From a virus, in the IMG/VR virus record IMGVR_UViG_3300006735_000055, positions 1 through 48,818 of that record: a DNA stretch of 48,818 nt; one strand, given 5' to 3'. Shown one piece after another: positions 1,749 through 46,308 of the stretch. Positions within the stretch are counted from its first letter, which is position 1; the number at the start of each line of letters is the position of its first letter. The position numbers were made by a program, and so were the translations under genes. The notes under the pieces were generated by a model that was given only the letters and a program-made list of their open reading frames with translations, was not told the origin of the DNA and did not search any database.

Positions 1749-3008
1749 ATGACCACTGAAAACAAAAATGAAAATACACCTAAACCAGTGTTTGATTTGA
1801 ATAAGCACACTTTCAAATTGCTGCAATCTGAGCCGTTCTTTGCTGGCTTGTCTCGTCGTATCCATAAGAAGGAAAGCACTGCTATTCCAACTGCCGGTGT
1901 GATGATTGATCCTGATACTGCTCAGTTCGTCATGCTCTACAACCCTAACTTCTTCGCTGAAATGCCCGAAGAACAGCGGCTTGGTGTTCTTATGCACGAG
2001 TTCTATCATCTTATATTTGAACACGTTACTGGTCGGCTACCCCCCGAGGGCATGAGCAAGATGTGGAATGTAGCCACTGACTTGGCTATCAATTCATTCT
2101 TGGTTGGTAAACTCCCAGAAGGTGGTTGTATCCCGACACAAGAGCCATTTCAAGACTATCCCTTGGAGATGTCAGCAGAATGGTATTTCTCCAAGTTACA
2201 GAACGACCCGCAATTCCAGCCTCCACAAGATGGCGAAGGTGATGGAGAAGGTGGAGAAGGCCAAGGGGATGGAGATCCATCTGAAGGCAACGGCTCCGGT
2301 TCTGGTGGTGGCTTACCTGATAGCCTCGATGACCATAGCGGTTGGGGTGAAGTTGATCAAGAGACTAAGGCAATGGCCGAGGAACGCTTGAAAGACGCTA
2401 TCCGCAAGGCTACTGACGAAGTCAATTCTGGTGGCCGTGGCTGGGGTTCTGTATCTCAGGATATGAGAAAGAAGATCCAAGACATGGTTACACCTAAAGT
2501 GAACTGGCGGTCTGTCCTTCGATACTTCGTCAAGACTTCCCAACGTGCTAATCGTCGCTCGACAGTGCGGAGGATAAACAAGCGTTTCCCATATATTCAT
2601 GCCGGAAAGAAGGTCAATCGTACAGCAAAGATTGCTATCTCTATCGATCAATCGGGGTCTGTCTCAGATCAAATGCTTGGCATCTTCTTTGCTGAATTGA
2701 ATGGTCTTGCTAAGTATGCCGAGTTTACCGTGGTTCCCTTCGATACAGAAGTTGCTGAAGATGAAGTTTATGTTTGGAAAAAAGGTAAACGACAGACTTT
2801 TGAGCGTGTATCTTGTGGAGGTACTTGCTTTGATGCCCCGACACGTTGGGTAAATGAACGTCAATTCGATGGTCATATCATCCTAACAGATATGGAAGCA
2901 CCAAAACCAGTTCCATCTAAATGTCAGCGAATGTGGATGACAACTCCAGAATGTGCTGCTCGTCCTTACTTTACGACAAACGAGCGTGTCATTGCGGTGG
3001 ATAAATGA
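1749..3008 (+). CDS. HExxH metallopeptidase-like plus VWA protein, MoxR partner
   Basis: A 419-residue two-domain protein. The N-terminal part has an HExxH zinc motif (HEFYH, residues 83-87) in LMHEFYHLIFEH, followed by NVATDLAIN, as in the DUF2201-type metallopeptidase-like family. An acidic glycine-rich linker (about 160-190) follows. The C-terminal part is a VWA-like domain with a MIDAS-type D-x-S-x-S (D300, S302, S304 in IDQSGSVS) and a downstream ILTDME. This architecture typically sits beside a MoxR ATPase, as here. The start has GGAGG at 1740-1744. Its stop overlaps the next start (ATGA). It is probably metal-binding and remodelled by the ATPase; whether it cleaves protein is not shown. 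Confidence 0.85.
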   Translation: MTTENKNENTPKPVFDLNKHTFKLLQSEPFFAGLSRRIHKKESTAIPTAGVMIDPDTAQFVMLYNPNFFAEMPEEQRLGVLMHEFYHLIFEHVTGRLPPEGMSKMWNVATDLAINSFLVGKLPEGGCIPTQEPFQDYPLEMSAEWYFSKLQNDPQFQPPQDGEGDGEGGEGQGDGDPSEGNGSGSGGGLPDSLDDHSGWGEVDQETKAMAEERLKDAIRKATDEVNSGGRGWGSVSQDMRKKIQDMVTPKVNWRSVLRYFVKTSQRANRRSTVRRINKRFPYIHAGKKVNRTAKIAISIDQSGSVSDQMLGIFFAELNGLAKYAEFTVVPFDTEVAEDEVYVWKKGKRQTFERVSCGGTCFDAPTRWVNERQFDGHIILTDMEAPKPVPSKCQRMWMTTPECAARPYFTTNERVIAVDK

Positions 3009-3772: not shown

Positions 3773-3786
3773 TTTCAACTATTAAC

Positions 3787-3815
3787 TTGACAGATAGTTA
3801 CTGACAGGATACATT
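3787..3815 (+). promoter_or_regulatory. cassette promoter P4 (class B)
   Basis: TTGACA 3787-3792, the same 17-bp spacer as P3 (GATAGTTACTGACAGGA), TACATT 3810-3815. It drives the gene at 3859. No hairpin is seen before it. Confidence 0.8.
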
Positions 3816-3858
3816 ATTAACATGGATCAATTGTGATCCACCAACCAAAGGAGGGCTT

Positions 3859-4188
3859 ATGCCTTATATGACCGATAACGTGGGCGTTGTAGACGCTTTT
3901 ATGAACCTAAACACTGCAAATGCTGGTAGACTAAAGACAGATGGACAATCTCTATATTCTTATGATCTCCGTATTGCCGAACACATTCCACAAAGGGATG
4001 GCACAGCAATCACCGTTGTATATGATTATACAAGTAAGGGTGGTAATTACGTATCACAGACAACATCTGGACATGTTGGACTTGTGAAGAGAAGGATACC
4101 AAGAAGGAATGTAATCTCAGTTACTGAAGGGCTTGACACCGGATTGATCGAGGATAGACCAAATGTTATTAATAAAACACAAAGATAG
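3859..4188 (+). CDS. SLYSY-family small protein, copy 1
   Basis: 109 residues with a strong binding site (AAAGGAGG at 3847-3854). The core reads GQSLYSYDLRIAE ... VYDYT ... SQTTSGHVGLVKR. The same order of motifs occurs in the 92-residue protein at 8876 (NSLYSYNLKIAE ... VYDFT ... SMTTSQHVGLIKR), so the two are paralogues about 5 kb apart. I recall similar short proteins in other large phages without a known role. Function unknown. Confidence 0.75.
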   Translation: MPYMTDNVGVVDAFMNLNTANAGRLKTDGQSLYSYDLRIAEHIPQRDGTAITVVYDYTSKGGNYVSQTTSGHVGLVKRRIPRRNVISVTEGLDTGLIEDRPNVINKTQR

Positions 4189-4351
4189 AGGTTATGGACA
4201 TGCGGAGAAAACTACTCAGAATGACGGCAGGGTTGGCTATAGTGTGCGGTTTTTCGACCGTTATGATTATCAACTACATTTTACAGAACAATCAATCTCA
4301 AGAGGAATACTAGAGATACTGGAGGAAGGAGAAAAAACGGTCAGAAATTGA
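4163..4351 (+). CDS. YGHA-family small protein, copy 1
   Basis: 62 residues, overlapping the previous gene by 26 bases. GAGGAT at 4150-4155 is a possible binding site. GYGHAEK and GYSVRFFDRYDY correspond to RYGHAIEK and YIEVRFIDDYEN in the protein at 6065, so the two look paralogous. Its stop codon lies inside the downstream hairpin, so translation termination and the hairpin overlap. Function unknown. Confidence 0.6.
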   Translation: MLLIKHKDRGYGHAEKTTQNDGRVGYSVRFFDRYDYQLHFTEQSISRGILEILEEGEKTVRN

Positions 4352-4356
4352 CCGTT
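4336..4356 (+). terminator. cassette hairpin/terminator
   Basis: A perfect 8-bp stem AACGGTCA (4336-4343) / TGACCGTT (4349-4356) with a GAAAT loop, then ACTTTCCTT. It contains the stop codon of the preceding gene and lies 8 bases before the next promoter. Confidence 0.65.
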
Positions 4357-4363
4357 ACTTTCC

Positions 4364-4392
4364 TTGACAGATAGTTACTGATAGGATACAAT
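4364..4392 (+). promoter_or_regulatory. cassette promoter P5 (class B)
   Basis: TTGACA 4364-4369, 17-bp spacer GATAGTTACTGATAGGA (one change from P3/P4), TACAAT 4387-4392, then TATAACC. It drives the genes at 4424 and 4721. Confidence 0.8.
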
Positions 4393-4423
4393 AATAGTAT
4401 AACCCAAAACCATTGGAGGCACA

Positions 4424-4972: not shown

Positions 4973-4976
4973 AAAG

Positions 4977-4993
4977 CGGTCATTTTTTGACCG
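4977..4993 (+). terminator. cassette terminator
   Basis: CGGTCA (4977-4982) / TGACCG (4988-4993) with a TTTTT loop, flanked by AAAAAG upstream and TTTCTTATTT downstream. This gives a plausible intrinsic terminator, perhaps working in both directions. Confidence 0.65.
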
Positions 4994-5001
4994 TTTCTTA
5001 T

Positions 5002-5029
5002 TTGACAAATCCCCACAACGTGATACATT
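5002..5029 (+). promoter_or_regulatory. cassette promoter P6 (class A)
   Basis: TTGACA 5002-5007, 16-bp spacer ending CAACGTGA, TACATT 5024-5029. It is the only promoter of this type found before the run of overlapping small genes at 5060-6790, so it probably drives all of them. Confidence 0.8.
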
Positions 5030-5059
5030 ATTAACATAACCCGAACGAATGGAGTTCAA

Positions 5060-5389
5060 ATGATAAAATCAGAAACCTCTTGGCTTGATAAAGAAGTAGA
5101 ATGTGACGATTGTGCTCATCTTATCCCAATGTCCTATATGTGCGTCGATTATGATGGTGAAAACGTTTGTGAAGGCTGTGCTGAACAGCGAGATGTTGAG
5201 GATCAAAAAGTCAACCTAAAAGTAGGCGATTTAGTCATTGAAAAGAGGCTGCACAACCATCCGTTTCCTGCTCAACTATCGATGGTAACTGAAATTATTG
5301 AACAGGCCCAAAGAAAAGTAATGGTTCAAAACATTCGCACTGGCGGTGAATACTGGCTTTATCTATATGATGTAAGGGAGATCAAATGA
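5060..5389 (+). CDS. zinc-ribbon plus GDLV barrel-like protein
   Basis: 109 residues. The N-terminal half carries two cysteine pairs (CDDC near residue 15 and CEGC near 37) that look like a small zinc ribbon. The C-terminal half opens with LKVGDLVIEKR and ends with YWLYLYDVREIK, matching the GDLV family and especially the 4721 protein. This looks like a fusion of a metal-binding module to the barrel. It heads the nine-gene overlapping array; its stop overlaps the next start (ATGA). The zinc and barrel calls are pattern inferences. Confidence 0.7.
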   Translation: MIKSETSWLDKEVECDDCAHLIPMSYMCVDYDGENVCEGCAEQRDVEDQKVNLKVGDLVIEKRLHNHPFPAQLSMVTEIIEQAQRKVMVQNIRTGGEYWLYLYDVREIK

Positions 5390-5574
5390 AATTACAGATA
5401 GGAGAATTGGTGGTTTACTCATCAACTTGGATAGCCAATAAAATCGGCCTCAAAGAAATCTATCAAAACTCGGTTGGCATTGTGAAAAGCGGAAAGGGTG
5501 AACCTTGCTATTCGGTTGTGTGGAGTTGTGGGGAAACTCGCGTGGTTCATTATACATATTTGGAGAGATTATGA
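5386..5574 (+). CDS. GDLV-family small barrel-like protein
   Basis: 62 residues, ATGA-coupled at both ends. Opening LQIGELVVYSS, then SVGIVKSG and a YSVVWSCG strand, the layout shared across the array. GGGAG at 5376-5380 serves as binding site. No known function. Confidence 0.7.
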   Translation: MKLQIGELVVYSSTWIANKIGLKEIYQNSVGIVKSGKGEPCYSVVWSCGETRVVHYTYLERL

Positions 5575-5750
5575 AAGTTGGAGATTTAGTAAGATTGAAG
5601 AGATATATAAGCACCGACGTGTACGGTGTTGTGGTGGAAGTCAAGTACAATATATCAATGGCTGAGGCTTTTTTACTGGTGCAAACGTCCAAGGGAGAAC
5701 GAAGAATGGAGCGTCAATCTTGGTTAGAGGTGATAAATGAAAATAGGTGA
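5571..5750 (+). CDS. GDLV-family small barrel-like protein
   Basis: 59 residues from the ATG at 5571, which overlaps the upstream stop and has GGAGAG just before it. A longer in-frame reading from 5505 lies entirely inside the upstream gene and is not favoured. Opening MKVGDLVRLKR, then YGVVVEVKY and a charged strand-rich end. The 3' end overlaps the next gene by 14 bases. Confidence 0.7.
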   Translation: MKVGDLVRLKRYISTDVYGVVVEVKYNISMAEAFLLVQTSKGERRMERQSWLEVINENR

Positions 5751-5895
5751 TTTAGTAACAGTCAAAAGAGATATGCATGGTGACATTGGTATCGTGATTG
5801 ATTTGAATTATCTTGGAGACAAAGCAAAGATAATTTGGGATGATTTATCTATTTATTGGGAACCGTCCCGTGCGTTGGAGGTATTATGCAAGTAG
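5737..5895 (+). CDS. GDLV-family small barrel-like protein
   Basis: Only 52 residues. MKIGDLVTVKR, then DIGIVIDLNY and KIIWDDL give one complete set of the family motifs (GDLV...GIV...IW), the shortest version in the array. TAGAGG at 5725-5730 precedes the start. It overlaps both neighbours (14 and 10 bases), so translation is coupled. Confidence 0.7.
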   Translation: MKIGDLVTVKRDMHGDIGIVIDLNYLGDKAKIIWDDLSIYWEPSRALEVLCK

Positions 5896-6068
5896 GCGAT
5901 TTAGTAAAATATGATGCAGAAGATGGTGACACGCTTGGGATCGGAATAATAACAAAAACAGAGCGAACACCGTTTAGCCTGCATTGCTGGGTTCTGTGGA
6001 ACTTTGGAGACATTATCCATCATTCCTCTTATGCCTTAACAAAACTCGATACACTGGAGAACAAATGA
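5886..6068 (+). CDS. GDLV-family small barrel-like protein
   Basis: 60 residues from ATG 5886, preceded by TTGGAGG at 5876-5882. MQVGDLVKYDAEDGD, then GIGIITKTE and CWVLWNFGD. It overlaps the upstream gene by 10 bases and the downstream one by ATGA. The LWN-G motif recurs in the proteins at 6423 and 6605, suggesting these arose by recent duplication. Confidence 0.7.
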   Translation: MQVGDLVKYDAEDGDTLGIGIITKTERTPFSLHCWVLWNFGDIIHHSSYALTKLDTLENK

Positions 6069-6259
6069 ATAATGTAATGTTAATAACAGATGCCGATGGT
6101 TCAAGATACGGGCATGCGATAGAAAAAGTCAATCAATATGGCCATAAATATATCGAGGTTCGCTTCATAGATGATTATGAAAATGTGCATACAACAAATT
6201 GGTCTAGTTTCCTTATTTTTTATGAGGTTCTCAATTACAATTTAGGGAAGGAAGAATGA
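6065..6259 (+). CDS. YGHA-family small protein, copy 2
   Basis: 64 residues from ATG 6065 (ATGA overlap, CTGGAG upstream). RYGHAIEK and YIEVRFIDDYEN match the protein at 4163. It lacks the GDLV opening, so the array is not made only of one family, although a distantly related barrel is possible. Function unknown. Confidence 0.65.
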   Translation: MNNVMLITDADGSRYGHAIEKVNQYGHKYIEVRFIDDYENVHTTNWSSFLIFYEVLNYNLGKEE

Positions 6260-6426
6260 AGATAGGCGATCTAATTTATATACGAGATAATATGAGCATA
6301 CACAATATAAATGGTCAAGTTGGCATCATTCAGTCAATCCCAAACCGCTGGAAGCAATATAAAGTTTTTGTGGTAAGTCTAAACCGAGCAGTGTTCCTGA
6401 CACCCGCAGTAATGGAAAAACTATGA
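6256..6426 (+). CDS. GDLV-family small barrel-like protein
   Basis: 56 residues, with GGAAGGAAG immediately before the start and ATGA overlaps at both ends. MKIGDLIYIRD, then GQVGIIQSIP and YKVFVVSLN, the family layout, but the final W-containing strand is replaced by VVSLNRAVFL. Confidence 0.7.
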   Translation: MKIGDLIYIRDNMSIHNINGQVGIIQSIPNRWKQYKVFVVSLNRAVFLTPAVMEKL

Positions 6427-6608
6427 AGAAGGGTGTCTTGGTCAAATGGTCGGATATATGGCTAAGAGGTTCTGGAACCAACCTGCATGAATATAAAGAT
6501 CAACTTGGAGTTGTAATCGAGAAAGGAGAAATACCGAATTGCTGGATGGTTCTTTGGAATAATGGTATCGTCGATGAAGTTCATGTCGAGTATCTGGAAT
6601 TGATATGA
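6423..6608 (+). CDS. GDLV-family small barrel-like protein
   Basis: 61 residues. KKGVLVKWSD replaces GDLV with GVLV. LGVVIEKGE and WMVLWNNG follow. ATGA-coupled on both sides; the binding site is weak (TGGAAAAA), which fits re-initiation by ribosomes finishing the upstream gene. Confidence 0.7.
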   Translation: MKKGVLVKWSDIWLRGSGTNLHEYKDQLGVVIEKGEIPNCWMVLWNNGIVDEVHVEYLELI

Positions 6609-6790
6609 CGGCATTGAAAGAGGGCGATTTAGTTGTCGATATATTCTCGAATAATGAACGAATAGGAGTTATTATCGATATATCATTGAACGGTGTATTT
6701 GCTGAAGTCTTATGGAACGATGGAAGCGTAGCGCATTATGACACGTTCTTCCTTGATAGACTGGAAGTTCCCGAGGCCCTAAAAAAATAA
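6605..6790 (+). CDS. GDLV-family small barrel-like protein
   Basis: 61 residues, last member of the overlapping run. LKEGDLVVDIFSNNERIGVIIDIS and AEVLWNDGS carry the full set of family motifs. Its closest visible relative is the 6423 product (LWNNG/LWNDG). It is followed by about 70 bases of A/G-rich sequence and then a separated member. Confidence 0.7.
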   Translation: MTALKEGDLVVDIFSNNERIGVIIDISLNGVFAEVLWNDGSVAHYDTFFLDRLEVPEALKK

Positions 6791-6861
6791 TTGTAAAAAG
6801 AAAGAAGAAGTAAAAAACGGGTAGAAGAATAATAACATCAATAAGGATAACGAGTAAGAGA

Positions 6862-7059
6862 ATGATAGGTAAAGGAAAGGAAGGAAGTATTATTCAGAAA
6901 GGGGACTTAGTTCTTCGTGGTGGTGTTATGTTTATCGTATTGGATATAGGTGACTATGAGCATCACGGTTATTGTCAGGTATCGCCAGCAAATGATTTGA
7001 ATACTCATATATGGATACTATCCCGCCTGTTGATGCCCCTTGGCTTCATCTGGGGCTGA
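6862..7059 (+). CDS. GDLV-family protein at array edge
   Basis: 65 residues; IIQKGDLVLRGGVMFIVLDIG places it in the family. GTAAGAG before the ATG is a modest binding site. The last dozen codons run into a stem-loop (7043-7062) that starts the long non-coding block. The C-terminus (LLMPLGFIWG) may therefore be a newer extension read into structured DNA. Confidence 0.55.
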   Translation: MIGKGKEGSIIQKGDLVLRGGVMFIVLDIGDYEHHGYCQVSPANDLNTHIWILSRLLMPLGFIWG

Positions 7060-7078
7060 AGCGTAGCGGATGCCCCTT
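7032..7078 (+). repeat. 10-bp direct repeat around a stem-loop
   Basis: GATGCCCCTT occurs at 7032-7041 and 7069-7078. Between the copies, GCTTCA (7043-7048) and TGAAGC (7057-7062) form a stem that includes the stop codon of the preceding gene. Confidence 0.5.
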
Positions 7079-7287
7079 ACCCCTGTTACGTGTATGTGAA
7101 TTATAGTTCTTATTTTATGAAAAAAATAATCCTCTTCGGATGTGGTGTCCGTGCCTGTATCCCCCCATACAGCGTTCTGTTTCCCTTCTACCCAGATACC
7201 CCCGTACCCCGACCCGAGTATGCCTTTCAAGCCCGTAAACGTGCATAGACGCGCTTTGAGTGATGCGGGAGTGTGTTGACGCGTCTG

Positions 7288-7371
7288 CGTCCATAGGATG
7301 CAATGTGGACGTGTTGTGGGCCTGTTCTGTGGGTGCTGGAGTGCGCTTGTAGTGCTTGTAGCAAGCCCACA
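7288..7371 (+). ncRNA. candidate structured RNA segment
   Basis: Two neighbouring stems: CGTCCA (7288-7293)/TGGACG (7306-7311) and TGTGGGC (7315-7321)/GCCCACA (7365-7371). The loop of the second holds the short tandem GCTTGTAG repeat. No covariation can be tested here, so this is only a fold-based suggestion. Confidence 0.25.
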
Positions 7372-7495
7372 TTTCCCCCGTATATCCGAGGTTATAGGCG
7401 AAACATAGCGTAACACGTAACGTAACATCATATTCCGTAACACCCGATCTTCAAATAATCCTTTTAGAACCTACACTATTTAGGATTTACCTTAC

Positions 7496-7525
7496 TTGAC
7501 GTAAGTAGTTCAAACCGACGATAAT
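7496..7525 (+). promoter_or_regulatory. weak sigma70-like promoter candidate
   Basis: TTGACG 7496-7501, 18-bp spacer, GATAAT 7520-7525, inside the non-coding block. No gene follows; if active it would make a non-coding transcript. Confidence 0.25.
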
Positions 7526-7763
7526 GCAACTTCAACCTACCTTTTTTGCTCTTGACGTGTATTCCTTGAAAGTGTGTGTTTTCGTTCATACACCCCTTGA
7601 ACTGCCGATTGTCGAGGTTCAACTTGGATTATTCGTACATGCATATACGTGAAAAACACCCAAAAACCCCTAAAATGCCCTAAAATCGGGGGATCGCGAT
7701 AAGCCCCGTATCATCGAGGGTTCTACAATGCCCGTGGTTCGGGCGTTATCGACGGATCCAATT

Positions 7764-7780
7764 ACTTTACATAATTATAT
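7764..7780 (+). repeat. 17-bp repeat, copy 1
   Basis: ACTTTACATAATTATAT, identical to copies at 7803 and 7954. The first 11 bases also occur upstream of the MoxR gene at 550-560. Confidence 0.8.
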
Positions 7781-7802
7781 TGAGGGCCTCTTCTGAAAAA
7801 AT

Positions 7803-7819
7803 ACTTTACATAATTATAT
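7803..7819 (+). repeat. 17-bp repeat, copy 2
   Basis: ACTTTACATAATTATAT preceded by TCTGAAAAAAT. It shares this A-rich lead with copy 3. Confidence 0.8.
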
Positions 7820-7953
7820 CGAGCGCGTAACATTCGGTTCCCACAGTCCCCACCAATTCGAGCGTATCCTTACGGGGCATGTAGTACTAACCCCTTGATT
7901 TCATTACGTTTTTTCATTTGCCTTGTTACGCGCATGTTACGATTTCAGAAAAA

Positions 7954-7970
7954 ACTTTACATAATTATAT
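7954..7970 (+). repeat. 17-bp repeat, copy 3
   Basis: ACTTTACATAATTATAT preceded by TCAGAAAAA, as in copy 2. Confidence 0.8.
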
Positions 7971-8127
7971 AACACGTTCCGCGCGTCATCCAACCAAAGC
8001 CCCCGTTATACCGGCACTATCAACGACTACATGCATACGTACGGCTCCTTCGGAGTCATGCGCGTGTTAGCGTACGCTTAGGGAGGGTATAGTATTTCAG
8101 CCCCGGAATACCGAGGTTCTTTATTTT

Positions 8128-8144
8128 CGGTCATTTTTTGTCCG
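8128..8144 (+). terminator. cassette hairpin/terminator
   Basis: CGGTCA (8128-8133) / TGTCCG (8139-8144) with one mismatch and a T loop; a GAAAAGAAAC spacer and TTTTTATTT follow. It closes the non-coding block. Confidence 0.5.
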
Positions 8145-8163
8145 GAAAAGAAACAGTTTTTAT

Positions 8164-8192
8164 TTGACAAGTTAGTTAGGGTATGATACATT
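8164..8192 (+). promoter_or_regulatory. cassette promoter P7
   Basis: TTGACA 8164-8169, 17-bp spacer, TGATACATT with TACATT at 8187-8192. The spacer differs from both main classes. It drives the gene at 8243. Confidence 0.75.
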
Positions 8193-8242
8193 ATAGGTAA
8201 GAAAGGAAATTACTCTTTTCAATCAAGCCTTGGAGGGCTTAC

Positions 8243-8536: not shown

Positions 8537-8557
8537 GAAAATAAATAAACTTTTTTC

Positions 8558-8585
8558 TTGACAAACTCTTTCAACGTGATACATT
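8558..8585 (+). promoter_or_regulatory. cassette promoter P8 (class A)
   Basis: TTGACA 8558-8563, 16-bp spacer AACTCTTTCAACGTGA (identical in P9), TACATT 8580-8585, then TATAACC. Confidence 0.8.
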
Positions 8586-8616
8586 ATAGTATAACCTCAA
8601 ACAAGGATAGTATCCA

Positions 8617-8799
8617 ATGACTTTTGATGAAGCACTTTTCAAACTCAAACAAACTCAAGATCTCTCTACAAACATGTTAGAACCTCTTGGAATTCCCTTC
8701 GATCACTTCTTAAGATACTGTAGTTTGACCTCGCACCAATCACGGCTTGCCATTGCTCGTCTTATCCAAAAACTCGAGAACAAAAGAAACCGGTCATAA
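8617..8799 (+). CDS. hypothetical small helical protein
   Basis: 60 residues, apparently all helix (DEALFKLKQTQ; SRLAIARLIQKLENKRN). AAGGAT lies upstream. Single-gene cassette between P8 and a hairpin-P9 unit. The size and composition would suit a small regulator or inhibitor, but nothing specific is recognised. Confidence 0.65.
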   Translation: MTFDEALFKLKQTQDLSTNMLEPLGIPFDHFLRYCSLTSHQSRLAIARLIQKLENKRNRS

Positions 8800-8806
8800 T
8801 TTGTCC
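8792..8806 (+). terminator. cassette hairpin/terminator
   Basis: GGTCA (8792-8796) / TGTCC (8802-8806) with one T-T mismatch, then ATCTTTTAATTT. It overlaps the stop of the 8617 gene, as at 4336. Confidence 0.5.
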
Positions 8807-8816
8807 ATCTTTTAAT

Positions 8817-8844
8817 TTGACAAACTCTTTCAACGTGATACATT
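8817..8844 (+). promoter_or_regulatory. cassette promoter P9 (class A)
   Basis: TTGACA 8817-8822, the spacer identical to P8, TACATT 8839-8844, then TATAACC. It drives the SLYSY copy at 8876 and the micro-genes behind it. Confidence 0.8.
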
Positions 8845-8875
8845 ATATATATAACCAATAACAAAGGAGCCAATC

Positions 8876-9154
8876 ATGGCTATCTCAACTAACTCAGATG
8901 TAATCTACTCTTTCCTTTCTGGTCGCGATGCTCGTGGCTTAAACCTCTTCGCTAGAGGCAATTCGCTTTATTCTTACAATCTCAAGATAGCCGAATGGAC
9001 TACCAATGGTGTGCTTGTCTATGACTTCACAGCAACCGGCAACGCTTTCATGTCAATGACAACCTCCCAGCACGTCGGACTTATCAAGCGAGAAGTCAAG
9101 CCTTCAAGTATTATGCTTGTTGAAGCCGCCCGTCACGCTGGTCTTATTCAATGA
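8876..9154 (+). CDS. SLYSY-family small protein, copy 2
   Basis: 92 residues with AAAGGAG upstream. NSLYSYNLKIAEWTTNG, VYDFTATG and MTTSQHVGLIKR match the motif order of the protein at 3859. The codon choice and cassette structure are like those of its paralogue. Role unknown. Confidence 0.75.
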   Translation: MAISTNSDVIYSFLSGRDARGLNLFARGNSLYSYNLKIAEWTTNGVLVYDFTATGNAFMSMTTSQHVGLIKREVKPSSIMLVEAARHAGLIQ

Positions 9155-9460: not shown

Positions 9461-9480
9461 AAAAAACTTTCCCTTATTTC

Positions 9481-9509
9481 TTGACAACCCTGTCCCAGCA
9501 TGATACATT
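9481..9509 (+). promoter_or_regulatory. cassette promoter P10
   Basis: TTGACA 9481-9486, 17-bp spacer ending CAGCATGA, TACATT 9504-9509. Last promoter of the repeated type. It drives the gene at 9558. Confidence 0.8.
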
Positions 9510-9557
9510 ATATATACAAGGAAGGCAATTCAGCCCCCTTTCAATTTCGGAGTCTCT

Positions 9558-21917: not shown

Positions 21918-22139
21918 ATGTTTAGTATTGGTGATTTAGTTACTCAAAAAGATTTCTCGACCTCGTTTATGTCAGATTTTCTAAAACGAAATTTGAATAT
22001 GGGTGTTGTGGGTATCGTATTGGAAATAAAGATTGAACTAGATCCTACATCTAGTGATGTCTTCCACAATATGGTGTTTATCCGCTGGTCAAATGGAACC
22101 ATTGAAAAACTACCAGAAATTTATTTAGAAAAAGTTTGA
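21918..22139 (+). CDS. GDLV-family barrel-like protein, probably leaderless
   Basis: 73 residues starting MFSIGDLVTQKD, then GIVLEIKIEL and VFIRWSNGTIEKL, the same motif order as the array at 5060-7059 but 15 kb away. ATG 21918 lies 7 bases after the -10 hexamer, so the message would have almost no 5' leader. An in-frame ATG at 21900 would lie inside the promoter and is unlikely. A dispersed, separately regulated member of the family. Confidence 0.7.
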   Translation: MFSIGDLVTQKDFSTSFMSDFLKRNLNMGVVGIVLEIKIELDPTSSDVFHNMVFIRWSNGTIEKLPEIYLEKV

Positions 22140-44517: not shown

Positions 44518-46308
44518 ATGCCGAACAAGAAAAATATAAAATATACGAATAGAGATTTTGATTCAATCAAATCTGCATTAGTCAACCATGCACAAAGATA
44601 TTACCCAGATAGATACAAGGATTTCTCTGAAGCATCCTTTGGCTCGATGGTTTTTGATGCTGTTGCCTATGTTGGAGATGTTCTATCATTCTATCTTGAT
44701 TATCAGATAAACGAATCGTTTTTGACTACTGCAACTGATTACAGTAACGTAAAGAGGCTAGCAGAAACAGTTGGATATAAAAGAAGAGGTATTCCATCAT
44801 CTTTCGGTATAGCATCCCTTTATGTTATCGTGCCGGCTGATACAGCAGGTCTCGGCCCAGACACTACTCTTTTACCAATTCTCAAAAAGAACGCAACCTT
44901 TACAGCCCCGAATGGCGGCTTTATTCTTCTTGATGATGTAGACTTTGCAGGGTTCAATACGGAAACCGTCGCAGCAAGAAGAGACGCATCAACTGGATTA
45001 CCAACGGACTATGCTATAAAAGCATTTGGTAGAGTGATGTCTGGTACTTTCAAGACCGTAGATCTCGCTATAGGTGATTTTGAGAGATACAAAAAACTAA
45101 CAGTATCAGATACGAAAGTAACTAAAATCATATCGGTAATTGATAGTGAAGGTCATCGATATTATGAAGTGGATAATCTGGCTCAGAGTGTAATATATCA
45201 AGAGACAACAAACACTAATTATAAAAACGATGGCGTACCTTCTATTCTCAAGCCCGTCGTGGCTCCTCGTAGATTTACTGTAGCCGAAGTGGGAGCCGAT
45301 ACTGTGTTGCAATTCGGTCATGGATCAGATGCAGAGGACACAACAGAGGACATATTAGACCCAACGAGTGTTCTTGTTCAGAGACATGGTTTTGACTTTA
45401 ACACCAATAAGAATTTTGATCCATTCAAGTTAGTCAATAATGATTCTCTTGGGATATCTCCGGCTAACACAACACTTACTATCACATACATAGAAAACAC
45501 ATCAGAGAATAATAACTTGGCCCCAAATCAACTAACAGGAGTTGGAACAACTGATTTCTTCTTTGAAAACCAAGCATTACTCAATGCATCAAAAATGACA
45601 ACAGTTGAAAATTCACTGGAGATCACCAATGAAACTCAAATTATTGGGTCAACTTTTGATATTGAGTCATCTGAGGATTTAAAAATAAGAGCATTATCAA
45701 ACTACAGTTCCCAAGGCCGTGCAGTAACAAAAACGGACTATGAATCTTTAGTGTATATGATGCCTGCTAATTTTGGCTCTGTTTCGAGAATATCAGTTAT
45801 AAATGATCCATCATCTTCAAACCGTCGATTATCAATGTATGTTGTGTCGCAAGACGTGAACGGATACCTGACTTCTTCAAACACAACAATCAAAAATAAT
45901 ATCAAGACTTGGTTGAGTAACTATAAAATGCTAAACGATATTATTGATATATTTGACGCTAAAATAGTCAACTTTGCATTCGACTTCAAGATCATTACCA
46001 ACCCGGGCTATGACCCAGAACAAGTATTGATCGAGTGTAAACAAGAGTTATCTGCTTTGTTTGCAAACAAACTATACATCGGAGAACCTATTTATCTTTC
46101 TAAAATATACAATACGATAAATAAAGTCCCCGGAGTATCTGATTGCGTTAGTGTGACTCCAAGTATTCCAACAGGAACTAATTATGCTGAAACATTTCTT
46201 CTTCTTGAAGACATCATCTCACCAGATGGAACTTTCCTCAAGACTCCAAAGAATGTTATCATGGAATTGAAATTTCCGACAATAGACATCGTAGGGAGTA
46301 TTGCATAA
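44518..46308 (+). CDS. gp6/J-like baseplate wedge protein
   Basis: 596 residues with AAGAGGAA before ATG. The opening KYTNRDFDSIKSALVNHAQRY and FSEASFGSMVFDAVAYVGDVL are the N-terminal signature of the T4 gp6 / P2 J baseplate family. The C-terminal SSNTTIKNNIKTWLSNYKM and NKLYIGEPIYLSKIYNTINK match the J-like C-terminal domain. It forms the ring joining wedges around the hub. Length is normal. The last base overlaps the next start. Confidence 0.9.
   Translation: MPNKKNIKYTNRDFDSIKSALVNHAQRYYPDRYKDFSEASFGSMVFDAVAYVGDVLSFYLDYQINESFLTTATDYSNVKRLAETVGYKRRGIPSSFGIASLYVIVPADTAGLGPDTTLLPILKKNATFTAPNGGFILLDDVDFAGFNTETVAARRDASTGLPTDYAIKAFGRVMSGTFKTVDLAIGDFERYKKLTVSDTKVTKIISVIDSEGHRYYEVDNLAQSVIYQETTNTNYKNDGVPSILKPVVAPRRFTVAEVGADTVLQFGHGSDAEDTTEDILDPTSVLVQRHGFDFNTNKNFDPFKLVNNDSLGISPANTTLTITYIENTSENNNLAPNQLTGVGTTDFFFENQALLNASKMTTVENSLEITNETQIIGSTFDIESSEDLKIRALSNYSSQGRAVTKTDYESLVYMMPANFGSVSRISVINDPSSSNRRLSMYVVSQDVNGYLTSSNTTIKNNIKTWLSNYKMLNDIIDIFDAKIVNFAFDFKIITNPGYDPEQVLIECKQELSALFANKLYIGEPIYLSKIYNTINKVPGVSDCVSVTPSIPTGTNYAETFLLLEDIISPDGTFLKTPKNVIMELKFPTIDIVGSIA

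What the first reader, a model, noticed from the sequence alone, without database searches (positions are those of the whole stretch)
5060..7059. Tandem array of GDLV mini-barrel paralogues with overlapping start and stop codons
Ten small genes lie in 2 kb; nine of them (5060-6790) are linked by stop/start overlaps, mostly ATGA. At least eight of the ten open with K/E-[IV]-G-[DE]-L-[VI] or a close variant, followed by G-[IV]-[IV] and a V-x-[WI]-x-[ND]-G-like strand. Further members lie at 210, 3005 (C-terminal half), 4721 and 21918. The pattern looks like an SH3/KOW-like barrel that expanded by repeated duplication in this phage. Coupled translation suggests they are made in fixed ratios, perhaps forming hetero-oligomers or acting as a diversified inhibitor set against host factors. 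I know of no characterised phage system like this.
Basis: partly seen in the sequence, partly recalled or inferred. Interest (0 to 1): 0.8.

Follow-up and report, generated by a model that had tools for sequence, protein, structure and literature searches.

The report
Swappable mini-barrel gene cassettes in phages
A group of large, apparently marine phages carries dozens of tiny related barrel-shaped protein genes packed head to tail, and the short DNA join that both ends one gene and starts the next is where whole genes have been swapped between phages, giving an interchangeable protein toolkit for which no integrase was found.

Summary
The array is real. Genes at 5060-6790 are joined by eight overlaps (six ATGA, one 10-nt, one 14-nt). 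Seven full-length products, the C-terminal half of 5060, and outliers 4721 and 21918 form one family. 6065 belongs to another family (with 4163); 6862, 3005-C and 210 are not supported. AlphaFold2 gives a five-stranded SH3/KOW-like barrel (pLDDT 92.7).

It is not peculiar to this phage. A clade of large T4-like phages carries roughly 10-36 members per large record; 2170 units from 174 loci form 1478 clusters at 60% identity. Units meet at a DNA seam, TTGGAGGTNATNA[A/G]TGAAAGTCGGTGATTTGGT, that encodes the end of one protein (LEVI.ESR-stop), the Shine-Dalgarno for the next gene, and its start (KVGDLV). Near-identical units lie between unrelated neighbours in different phages, and homology stops at the seam. 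One 204-bp unit is identical in phages whose peptidases are 71% identical.

I read it as single-gene cassettes exchanged at the overlap seam, translated wherever they land, probably by homologous recombination (UvsX/RecA 12/12 records, tyrosine integrase 0/12). Protein function is inferred only: early host-interaction modules under purifying selection (dN/dS about 0.13). No relatives found in 50,697 phage records.

The parts
4974..5031 (+). stem-loop (terminator-like) followed by a sigma-70-type promoter-like repeat (TTGACA 5002, TG-TACATT to 5029); likely promoter of the array operon
5060..5389 (+). first gene: ZZ-type zinc-finger-like N-terminal segment plus a C-terminal GDLV mini-barrel domain (about 5219-5389)
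5386..5574 (+). GDLV mini-barrel cassette, ATGA junction upstream
5571..5750 (+). GDLV mini-barrel cassette, ATGA junction upstream; ends EVINENR-stop in a 14-nt overlap
5737..5895 (+). GDLV mini-barrel cassette, 14-nt seam upstream; AlphaFold2 model m6346abad5420; ends LEVLCK-stop in a 10-nt overlap
5886..6068 (+). GDLV mini-barrel cassette, 10-nt seam (ATGCAAGTAGG) upstream
6065..6259 (+). coupled gene of another family (paralogue of 4163-4351), small beta protein of unassigned fold
6256..6426 (+). GDLV mini-barrel cassette
6423..6608 (+). GDLV mini-barrel cassette
6605..6790 (+). GDLV mini-barrel cassette, last of the coupled run
6862..7059 (+). small gene after a 71-nt gap; has QKGDLV but is not recovered by the family profiles; relatives follow the 6065-type gene in L010 and L041
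4721..4972 (+). isolated GDLV family member (GTG start) upstream of the array operon
21918..22139 (+). isolated GDLV family member elsewhere in the window
4163..4351 (+). paralogue of 6065 outside the array

Best explanation
The array is an expression-ready cassette bank for which no integrase was found. Each cassette is one gene of about 50-70 codons for an SH3/KOW-like mini-barrel. Cassettes meet at a short shared DNA seam that does three jobs: it ends the upstream protein (last strand LEV plus I.ESR-stop), supplies the Shine-Dalgarno (GGAGGT inside the LEV codons), and starts the next gene (ATG/GTG then KVGDLV, whose Gly4-Asp5 codons GGT-GAT hold the upstream TGA in another frame). Because seams are alike, a crossover within a seam can add, delete, swap or move a whole cassette and leave the operon in frame, ribosome-loaded and under its existing promoter. 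Homologous recombination (phage UvsX/RecA-type) is the likely agent. The proteins are most likely early-made single-domain binding modules, each directed at a host or host-defence protein or at nucleic acid, so that phages assort a toolkit. Shown from sequence: family, predicted fold, seam, codon signature, homology breaks at seams, horizontal spread, purifying selection. Inferred: recombination enzyme, expression timing, coupled translation in vivo, molecular targets.
For: Family and fold. Seam: in 174 loci 827 of 1215 closely spaced pairs overlap by exactly 14 nt, 178 by 4 and 66 by 10, against 5 of 153 with 14 nt among larger non-member ORFs; consensus and codons. Shine-Dalgarno inside the C-terminal motif: Glu codon GAG 306/313 when a coupled gene follows, 63/93 at array ends (Fisher P 3e-15), 43% in gene bodies. 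The seam pattern alone retrieved 119 viral loci, all with family members, and only 4 stretches in the bacterial/archaeal genome collection. Exchange: units at least 60% identical in different loci have both neighbours different in 228 pairs and both the same in 63, while MoxR-peptidase order holds in 61 of 66 loci. In 31 such pairs nucleotide identity is about 0.25 outside and 0.75-0.97 inside, changing over the seam. A cassette identical over 204 bp lies in phages whose peptidases are 71% identical; cassette exceeds peptidase in 17 of 18 pairs. RecA family 12/12, tyrosine integrase 0/12, RecT 0/12. No hairpin at seams. Median dN/dS 0.13. One promoter/stem-loop element upstream.
Against: Exchange is inferred from assembled contigs, nearly all metagenomic; a seam of about 30 nt could mislead assemblers, although pairs at 60-95% identity cannot come from misjoining one sequence. 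The 17-of-18 comparison uses pairs chosen for high cassette identity. Serine recombinases, transposases, Rad52/ERF-type annealing proteins and homing endonucleases were not searched. Low dN/dS does not fit a fast arms race on each cassette. There are no target, expression or binding data. A coupled neighbour (6065) is of another family, so the array is not restricted to barrels. In the window itself most junctions are ATGA, not the dominant 14-nt class.
Confidence: 0.72

Rival explanations
1. Ordinary tandem duplication and divergence in place: arrays grow by unequal crossing-over within each phage, the seam is simply inherited, and there is little exchange between phages.
For: Recent neighbouring duplicates exist (L068 3198/3370, 79%; L017 2457/2609, 66%). 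All units share descent and the same gene ends.
Against: Only 11 within-locus pairs reach 45% identity, while between-locus pairs reach 100% with both neighbours different; 228 both-different against 63 both-same pairs; cassettes more alike than the backbone gene.
Confidence: 0.13
2. Apparent shuffling is an assembly artefact: the repeated seam joins unrelated fragments in metagenome assemblies.
For: Seams are about 30 nt, near the length of short assembly k-mers; nearly all contigs are metagenomic.
Against: Most both-different pairs are 60-95% identical, i.e. different sequences in different contexts (identity bands); within one assembly a misjoin would pair identical copies. The arrays lie in 160-195 kb contigs that span them.
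Confidence: 0.06
3. The barrels are nucleic-acid- or RNA-polymerase-associated KOW-type factors (like NusG/Spt5 KOW domains or the KOW domain of T4 MotB), acting on host transcription or nucleoid, and diversity reflects many nucleic-acid partners rather than host-protein targets.
For: Closest solved folds include Spt5 and NusG KOW; T4 MotB is an early DNA-binding protein with a predicted KOW domain.
Against: Fold rows are tied with Tudor, restriction-enzyme SH3 and other barrels, so fold does not choose; no nucleic-acid-binding assay. This concerns what the proteins do and is compatible with the cassette mechanism.
Confidence: 0.3
4. A dedicated site-specific recombinase (integron-like) moves the cassettes.
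For: Precise single-gene units with uniform ends.
Against: No tyrosine integrase in 12 records; seams form no attC-like hairpin; the seam is fully explained by translation signals. Serine recombinases not searched.
Confidence: 0.06

Closest known systems
PeSL promoter-terminator elements of T4-type phages (Arbiol 2010; Comeau 2014)
   Same: Repeated sequences between genes that mediate modular shuffling in T4-like phages; the window has stem-loop plus early-type promoter repeats, one directly before the array.
   Different: PeSLs are promoter/stem-loop motifs between modules. The seam here lies inside overlapping coding sequence, has no hairpin or promoter, couples translation and bounds single genes of about 180 bp. 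The two primary papers were not held; known from PMC4503421 and memory.
Integron gene-cassette arrays
   Same: Strings of small exchangeable promoterless single-gene cassettes read from an upstream promoter.
   Different: No tyrosine integrase in 12 records, no hairpin at six tested seams; cassettes belong to one protein family and overlap their neighbours.
SH3-like/KOW/Tudor barrels (Spt5 and NusG KOW, PHF1/PHF19 Tudor, Hpy99I SH3 domain, NdhS)
   Same: Five-stranded barrel; about 50-52 residues aligned at 1.5-2.4 A, Z about 8.
   Different: No Pfam, PHROG or NCBIfam family covers the set; matches are weak and scattered. Here they are stand-alone domains in large coupled arrays.
T4 MotB
   Same: Non-essential phage early protein with a predicted N-terminal KOW domain (PMC7827196).
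   Different: Two-domain KOW plus OB-fold protein; not described there as a tandem array.
YorP of the SPbeta prophage of Bacillus subtilis (PDB 2HEQ; the SPbeta origin is from memory)
   Same: Foldseek rank 4, small SH3-like barrel (TMq 0.77).
   Different: 84-residue chain; array or seam not examined.

Membership tests
SH3-like/KOW small barrel superfamily | Five-stranded SH3-like barrel | tested here: met
   AlphaFold2 pLDDT 92.7, strands 6-9, 17-23, 29-34, 39-43, 47-51; Foldseek TMq about 0.8, VIA Z to 8.6; prediction, not an experimental structure
Any curated Pfam/NCBIfam family | Score over the curated cut-off for the members | tested here: not met
   Window products: none over cut-off. 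Among 119 members no family covers more than 5, at weak E-values; none in NCBIfam
Integron cassette array | Tyrosine recombinase (integrase) in the genome | tested here: not met
   PF00589 0/12 records, control genomes 14/14
Integron cassette array | attC-type folding recombination site at each cassette boundary | tested here: not met
   Six seams folded as single-stranded DNA: z +1.0 to -1.4, no stable hairpin
PeSL-mediated module shuffling | Early promoter plus stem-loop between modules | tested here: inconclusive
   Such elements precede the operon (4974-5031) and other genes of the first 10 kb; published motifs could not be compared
PeSL-mediated module shuffling | Promoter/stem-loop at the boundaries between the array cassettes | tested here: not met
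   No strong + strand promoter or terminator between 5031 and 6790, one weak promoter-like match at 6046; no inverted repeats
T4 MotB family | KOW domain plus C-terminal OB-fold domain | tested here: not met
   Array members are single domains of 52-62 aa, apart from 5060 with its ZZ-like segment
Translationally coupled operon | Stop/start overlap with Shine-Dalgarno inside the upstream gene | tested here: met
   Overlaps; Shine-Dalgarno-like motif upstream in 90% of 14-nt, 98% of 10-nt and 68% of 4-nt junctions against 49% of unlinked members
Translationally coupled operon | Downstream translation depends on upstream translation | not testable with these tools
   Needs a reporter experiment

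The most novel reading that the evidence does not exclude
A phage clade has evolved a recombination-ready cassette system without an integrase, in which the overlap between two genes is at once coding on both sides, ribosome-binding, stop/start and crossover site, so that more than a thousand alternative mini-barrels circulate as interchangeable host-interaction modules.
Probability: 0.5. Interest if true: 0.88.

Novelty: new variant of a known kind. Interest (0 to 1): 0.77.

Why it matters
If right, it shows how a phage operon can stay open to new genes without an integrase: any gene with the same ends drops in and is transcribed and translated at once. It explains a sizeable set of unannotated small ORFs in a widespread group of large phages, supplies well over a thousand distinct miniature domains to screen for host targets and anti-defence activity, and gives a simple sequence signature for finding such arrays. 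It also warns that conserved protein motifs (KVGDLV, LEVI) can partly reflect constraint on the DNA rather than on the protein.

Tried and rejected
Near-identity DNA search, and tblastn with a consensus and with 29 concatenated members, against 50,697 phage records: no significant relatives. Pfam, PHROG, NCBIfam and PDB sequence profiles: only weak, scattered SH3/KOW-type matches. Rfam: nothing in the window. Membership of 6862, 3005-C, 210 and 6065 in the barrel family: not supported. 6065 as a divergent version of the same barrel: AlphaFold2 gives a confident small beta protein with one helix, but no convincing fold match, so left open. Diversifying selection on cassettes: median dN/dS 0.13, none of 107 pairs above 1. 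attC-like hairpins at seams: none. Tyrosine integrase or RecT: none in 12 records. Papers describing such arrays: none found in the open library, which lacks most subscription papers and preprints. Genome-collection hits: three of four are arrays on MAG contigs; the two MAG genomes checked (of L208 and L211) also carry the phage peptidase gene, so these are probably viral contigs; the fourth (L210) has no array.

Full report
What the window is. The window is a 48.8 kb virus record of 39.5% G+C without tRNA genes. It encodes a baseplate wedge-like protein at 44518-46308 (32% identical to Flavobacterium phage immuto, 31% to Microcystis phage Mel-JY01), a MoxR-like ATPase (571-1629) and a metallopeptidase/VWA-like protein (1749-3008). 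The latter finds relatives at 26-32% identity in cultured phages and at 54-90% in at least 80 IMG/VR contigs, many of 185-195 kb. It is therefore a fragment of a large T4-like phage. I call the clade marine from the names of the MAGs and samples that I recognise; this was not tested.

Checking the observation. Nine genes at 5060-6790 are chained by overlaps: six of 4 nt (ATGA), one of 14 nt (5571/5737) and one of 10 nt (5737/5886); 6862-7059 follows after 71 nt. To test relatedness I left each product out in turn, built a profile from the others and compared its score with 300 shuffles. 5386, 5571, 5737, 5886, 6256, 6423 and 6605, and the outliers 4721 and 21918, score 16-21 bits, above every shuffle. 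5060 (C-terminal half) and 210 are borderline; 6862, 3005-C and 6065 fail. With relatives in the profile, the 5060 domain is recovered and the other four are not. 6065 and 4163 are paralogues of one another. The N-terminal part of 5060 resembles a ZZ zinc finger and finds no counterpart in the relatives.

Fold. An alignment of 119 members gave an AlphaFold2 model of 5737 with mean pLDDT 92.7 and five strands, the last being the LEVLC segment. Foldseek and VIA-align place it among SH3-like barrels: Spt5 and NusG KOW domains, PHF1/PHF19 Tudor, the SH3 domain of Hpy99I, NdhS, HERC2. These rows are tied, so the fold does not choose a function.

A lineage-wide expansion. An iterated profile found about 1060 members in the 80 related loci, none in shuffled decoys, and all but one on the same strand. 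Of twenty records of 131-195 kb, nineteen hold 12-36 members and one holds 1; a second set of 20 seam-bearing records and genomes holds 9-35, and every one of those also has a relative of the window's peptidase (36-73% identity). The arrays therefore belong to one broad phage clade. Over 174 loci (duplicate contigs removed where recognised) I counted 2170 units in 1478 clusters at 60% identity, 1112 of them singletons: the pool is far from exhausted.

The seam. Of 1215 closely spaced neighbours, 827 overlap by exactly 14 nt, 178 by 4 and 66 by 10; among larger non-member ORFs of the same loci 14-nt overlaps are 5 of 153. The consensus of the 14-nt class is TTGGAGGTNATNA[A/G]TGAAAGTCGGTGATTTGGT. 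In one frame it reads L-E-V-I-(N/S)-E-S-R-stop, the end of the upstream barrel; in the other, start-K-V-G-D-L-V, the beginning of the next. GGAGGT is a Shine-Dalgarno sequence placed in the codons of the last strand. The 10-nt class (ATGCAAGTAGG) gives 'CK-stop', and the 4-nt class is ATGA, so the same gene start terminates whatever precedes it. A test at codon level: where a coupled gene follows, the Glu of the C-terminal motif is GAG in 306 of 313 cases; at array ends in 63 of 93; in gene bodies in 43% (Fisher P 3e-15). So the 'LEV' motif is held in part by the DNA. The near-universal GGT codon in the 14-nt class is partly true by definition, since the stop lies there; the abundance of the class and the GAG test are not.

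Specificity. In the bacterial/archaeal genome collection it found four stretches: three are arrays on MAG contigs (the two genomes checked carry the phage peptidase gene) and one has no array.

Cassette exchange. For pairs of units at least 60% identical in different loci, with coupled neighbours on both sides, both neighbours differ in 228, both agree in 63 and 28 are mixed; by contrast MoxR lies upstream and close to the peptidase in 61 of 66 loci. In 31 such pairs of equal length, nucleotide identity is about 0.25 in both flanks and 0.75-0.97 within the unit, changing over the seam on each side. The clearest case is L055:12575-12778 and L059:14515-14718: identical over 204 bp with shared seams and unrelated flanks, in phages whose peptidases are 71% identical. 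In 17 of 18 pairs at 80% or more the cassette is more similar than the peptidase, though these pairs were selected for high cassette identity. Recent tandem duplication is also seen (L068, L017). In the window's own nearest relatives (peptidase 86-90%), array genes are only about 30-63% identical, and 6256 and 6605 have no counterpart.

How it probably works. Because cassettes have the same ends, a crossover between two seams yields an array in which each gene still has its Shine-Dalgarno and start/stop overlap, under the same upstream promoter. In the window that promoter follows a stem-loop (4974-5031), and no strong + strand promoter lies within the array. A RecA/UvsX-type protein is present in 12 of 12 records, a tyrosine integrase or RecT in none, and seams form no hairpin, which points to homology-driven exchange rather than an integron-like system. 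Serine recombinases, Rad52/ERF-type proteins and homing endonucleases were not searched. Cores are under purifying selection (median dN/dS 0.13, none of 107 pairs above 1), so each cassette type is a maintained protein rather than decaying or fast-diversifying sequence. What the barrels bind is unknown. I favour early-made adaptors or inhibitors directed at various host factors, with a nucleic-acid or RNA-polymerase-associated KOW function as the main alternative; T4 MotB, an early DNA-binding protein with a predicted KOW domain that alters H-NS-DNA interaction (PMC7827196), is the nearest characterised parallel.

Known relatives of the idea. Modular shuffling at PeSL promoter/stem-loop elements has been reported for T4-like phages (cited in PMC4503421; the primary papers were not held). 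The window has elements of that make-up, but the seam is different in place and composition. Integron arrays are alike in logic but fail on integrase and attC. I found no description of this array in the open papers searched, which is limited evidence of novelty. I rate it a new variant of a known kind (modular shuffling at conserved gene boundaries), with a genuinely new boundary.

Limits. Nearly all loci are metagenome assemblies. Misassembly at seams cannot be excluded for single identical cases, but it does not account for the bulk of pairs at 60-95% identity. Translation, recombination and protein function have not been observed.

Noticed in passing
143-186, 441-484, 1687-1721, 3783-3817, 4336-4394, 4974-5031, 8160-8194, 8550-8588, 8786-8847, 9474-9512: Repeated TTGACA...(T)GATACATTAT promoter-like elements, several preceded by a GGTCA...TGACC stem-loop; they resemble PeSL-type promoter/terminator motifs and mark operons of the first 10 kb.
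   Followed up: partly
3859-4188 and 8876-9154: Paralogous pair (109 and 92 aa) of a family of unknown function found in 41 of the loci searched.
   Followed up: partly
7060-8240: About 1.1 kb with no convincing gene after the array, including repeats of ACTTTACATAATTATAT (7760, 7799, 7950); no Rfam match.
   Followed up: no
5060-5218: ZZ-type zinc-finger-like segment in front of a mini-barrel; the matching relatives in L010 and L041 align only over the barrel.
   Followed up: partly
1749-3008: PHROG 1314 labels this protein 'HNH endonuclease', but it reads as a metallopeptidase/VWA-like protein (HEFYHLIFEH motif) beside a MoxR ATPase; some public phage records carry the endonuclease name.
   Followed up: no
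L208, L209, L211: Arrays on contigs binned as bacterial MAGs (Deltaproteobacteria, Flavobacteriales, Methylococcaceae), probably phage contigs; the 305 kb Methylococcaceae TMED69 contig may be a large phage genome.
   Followed up: partly
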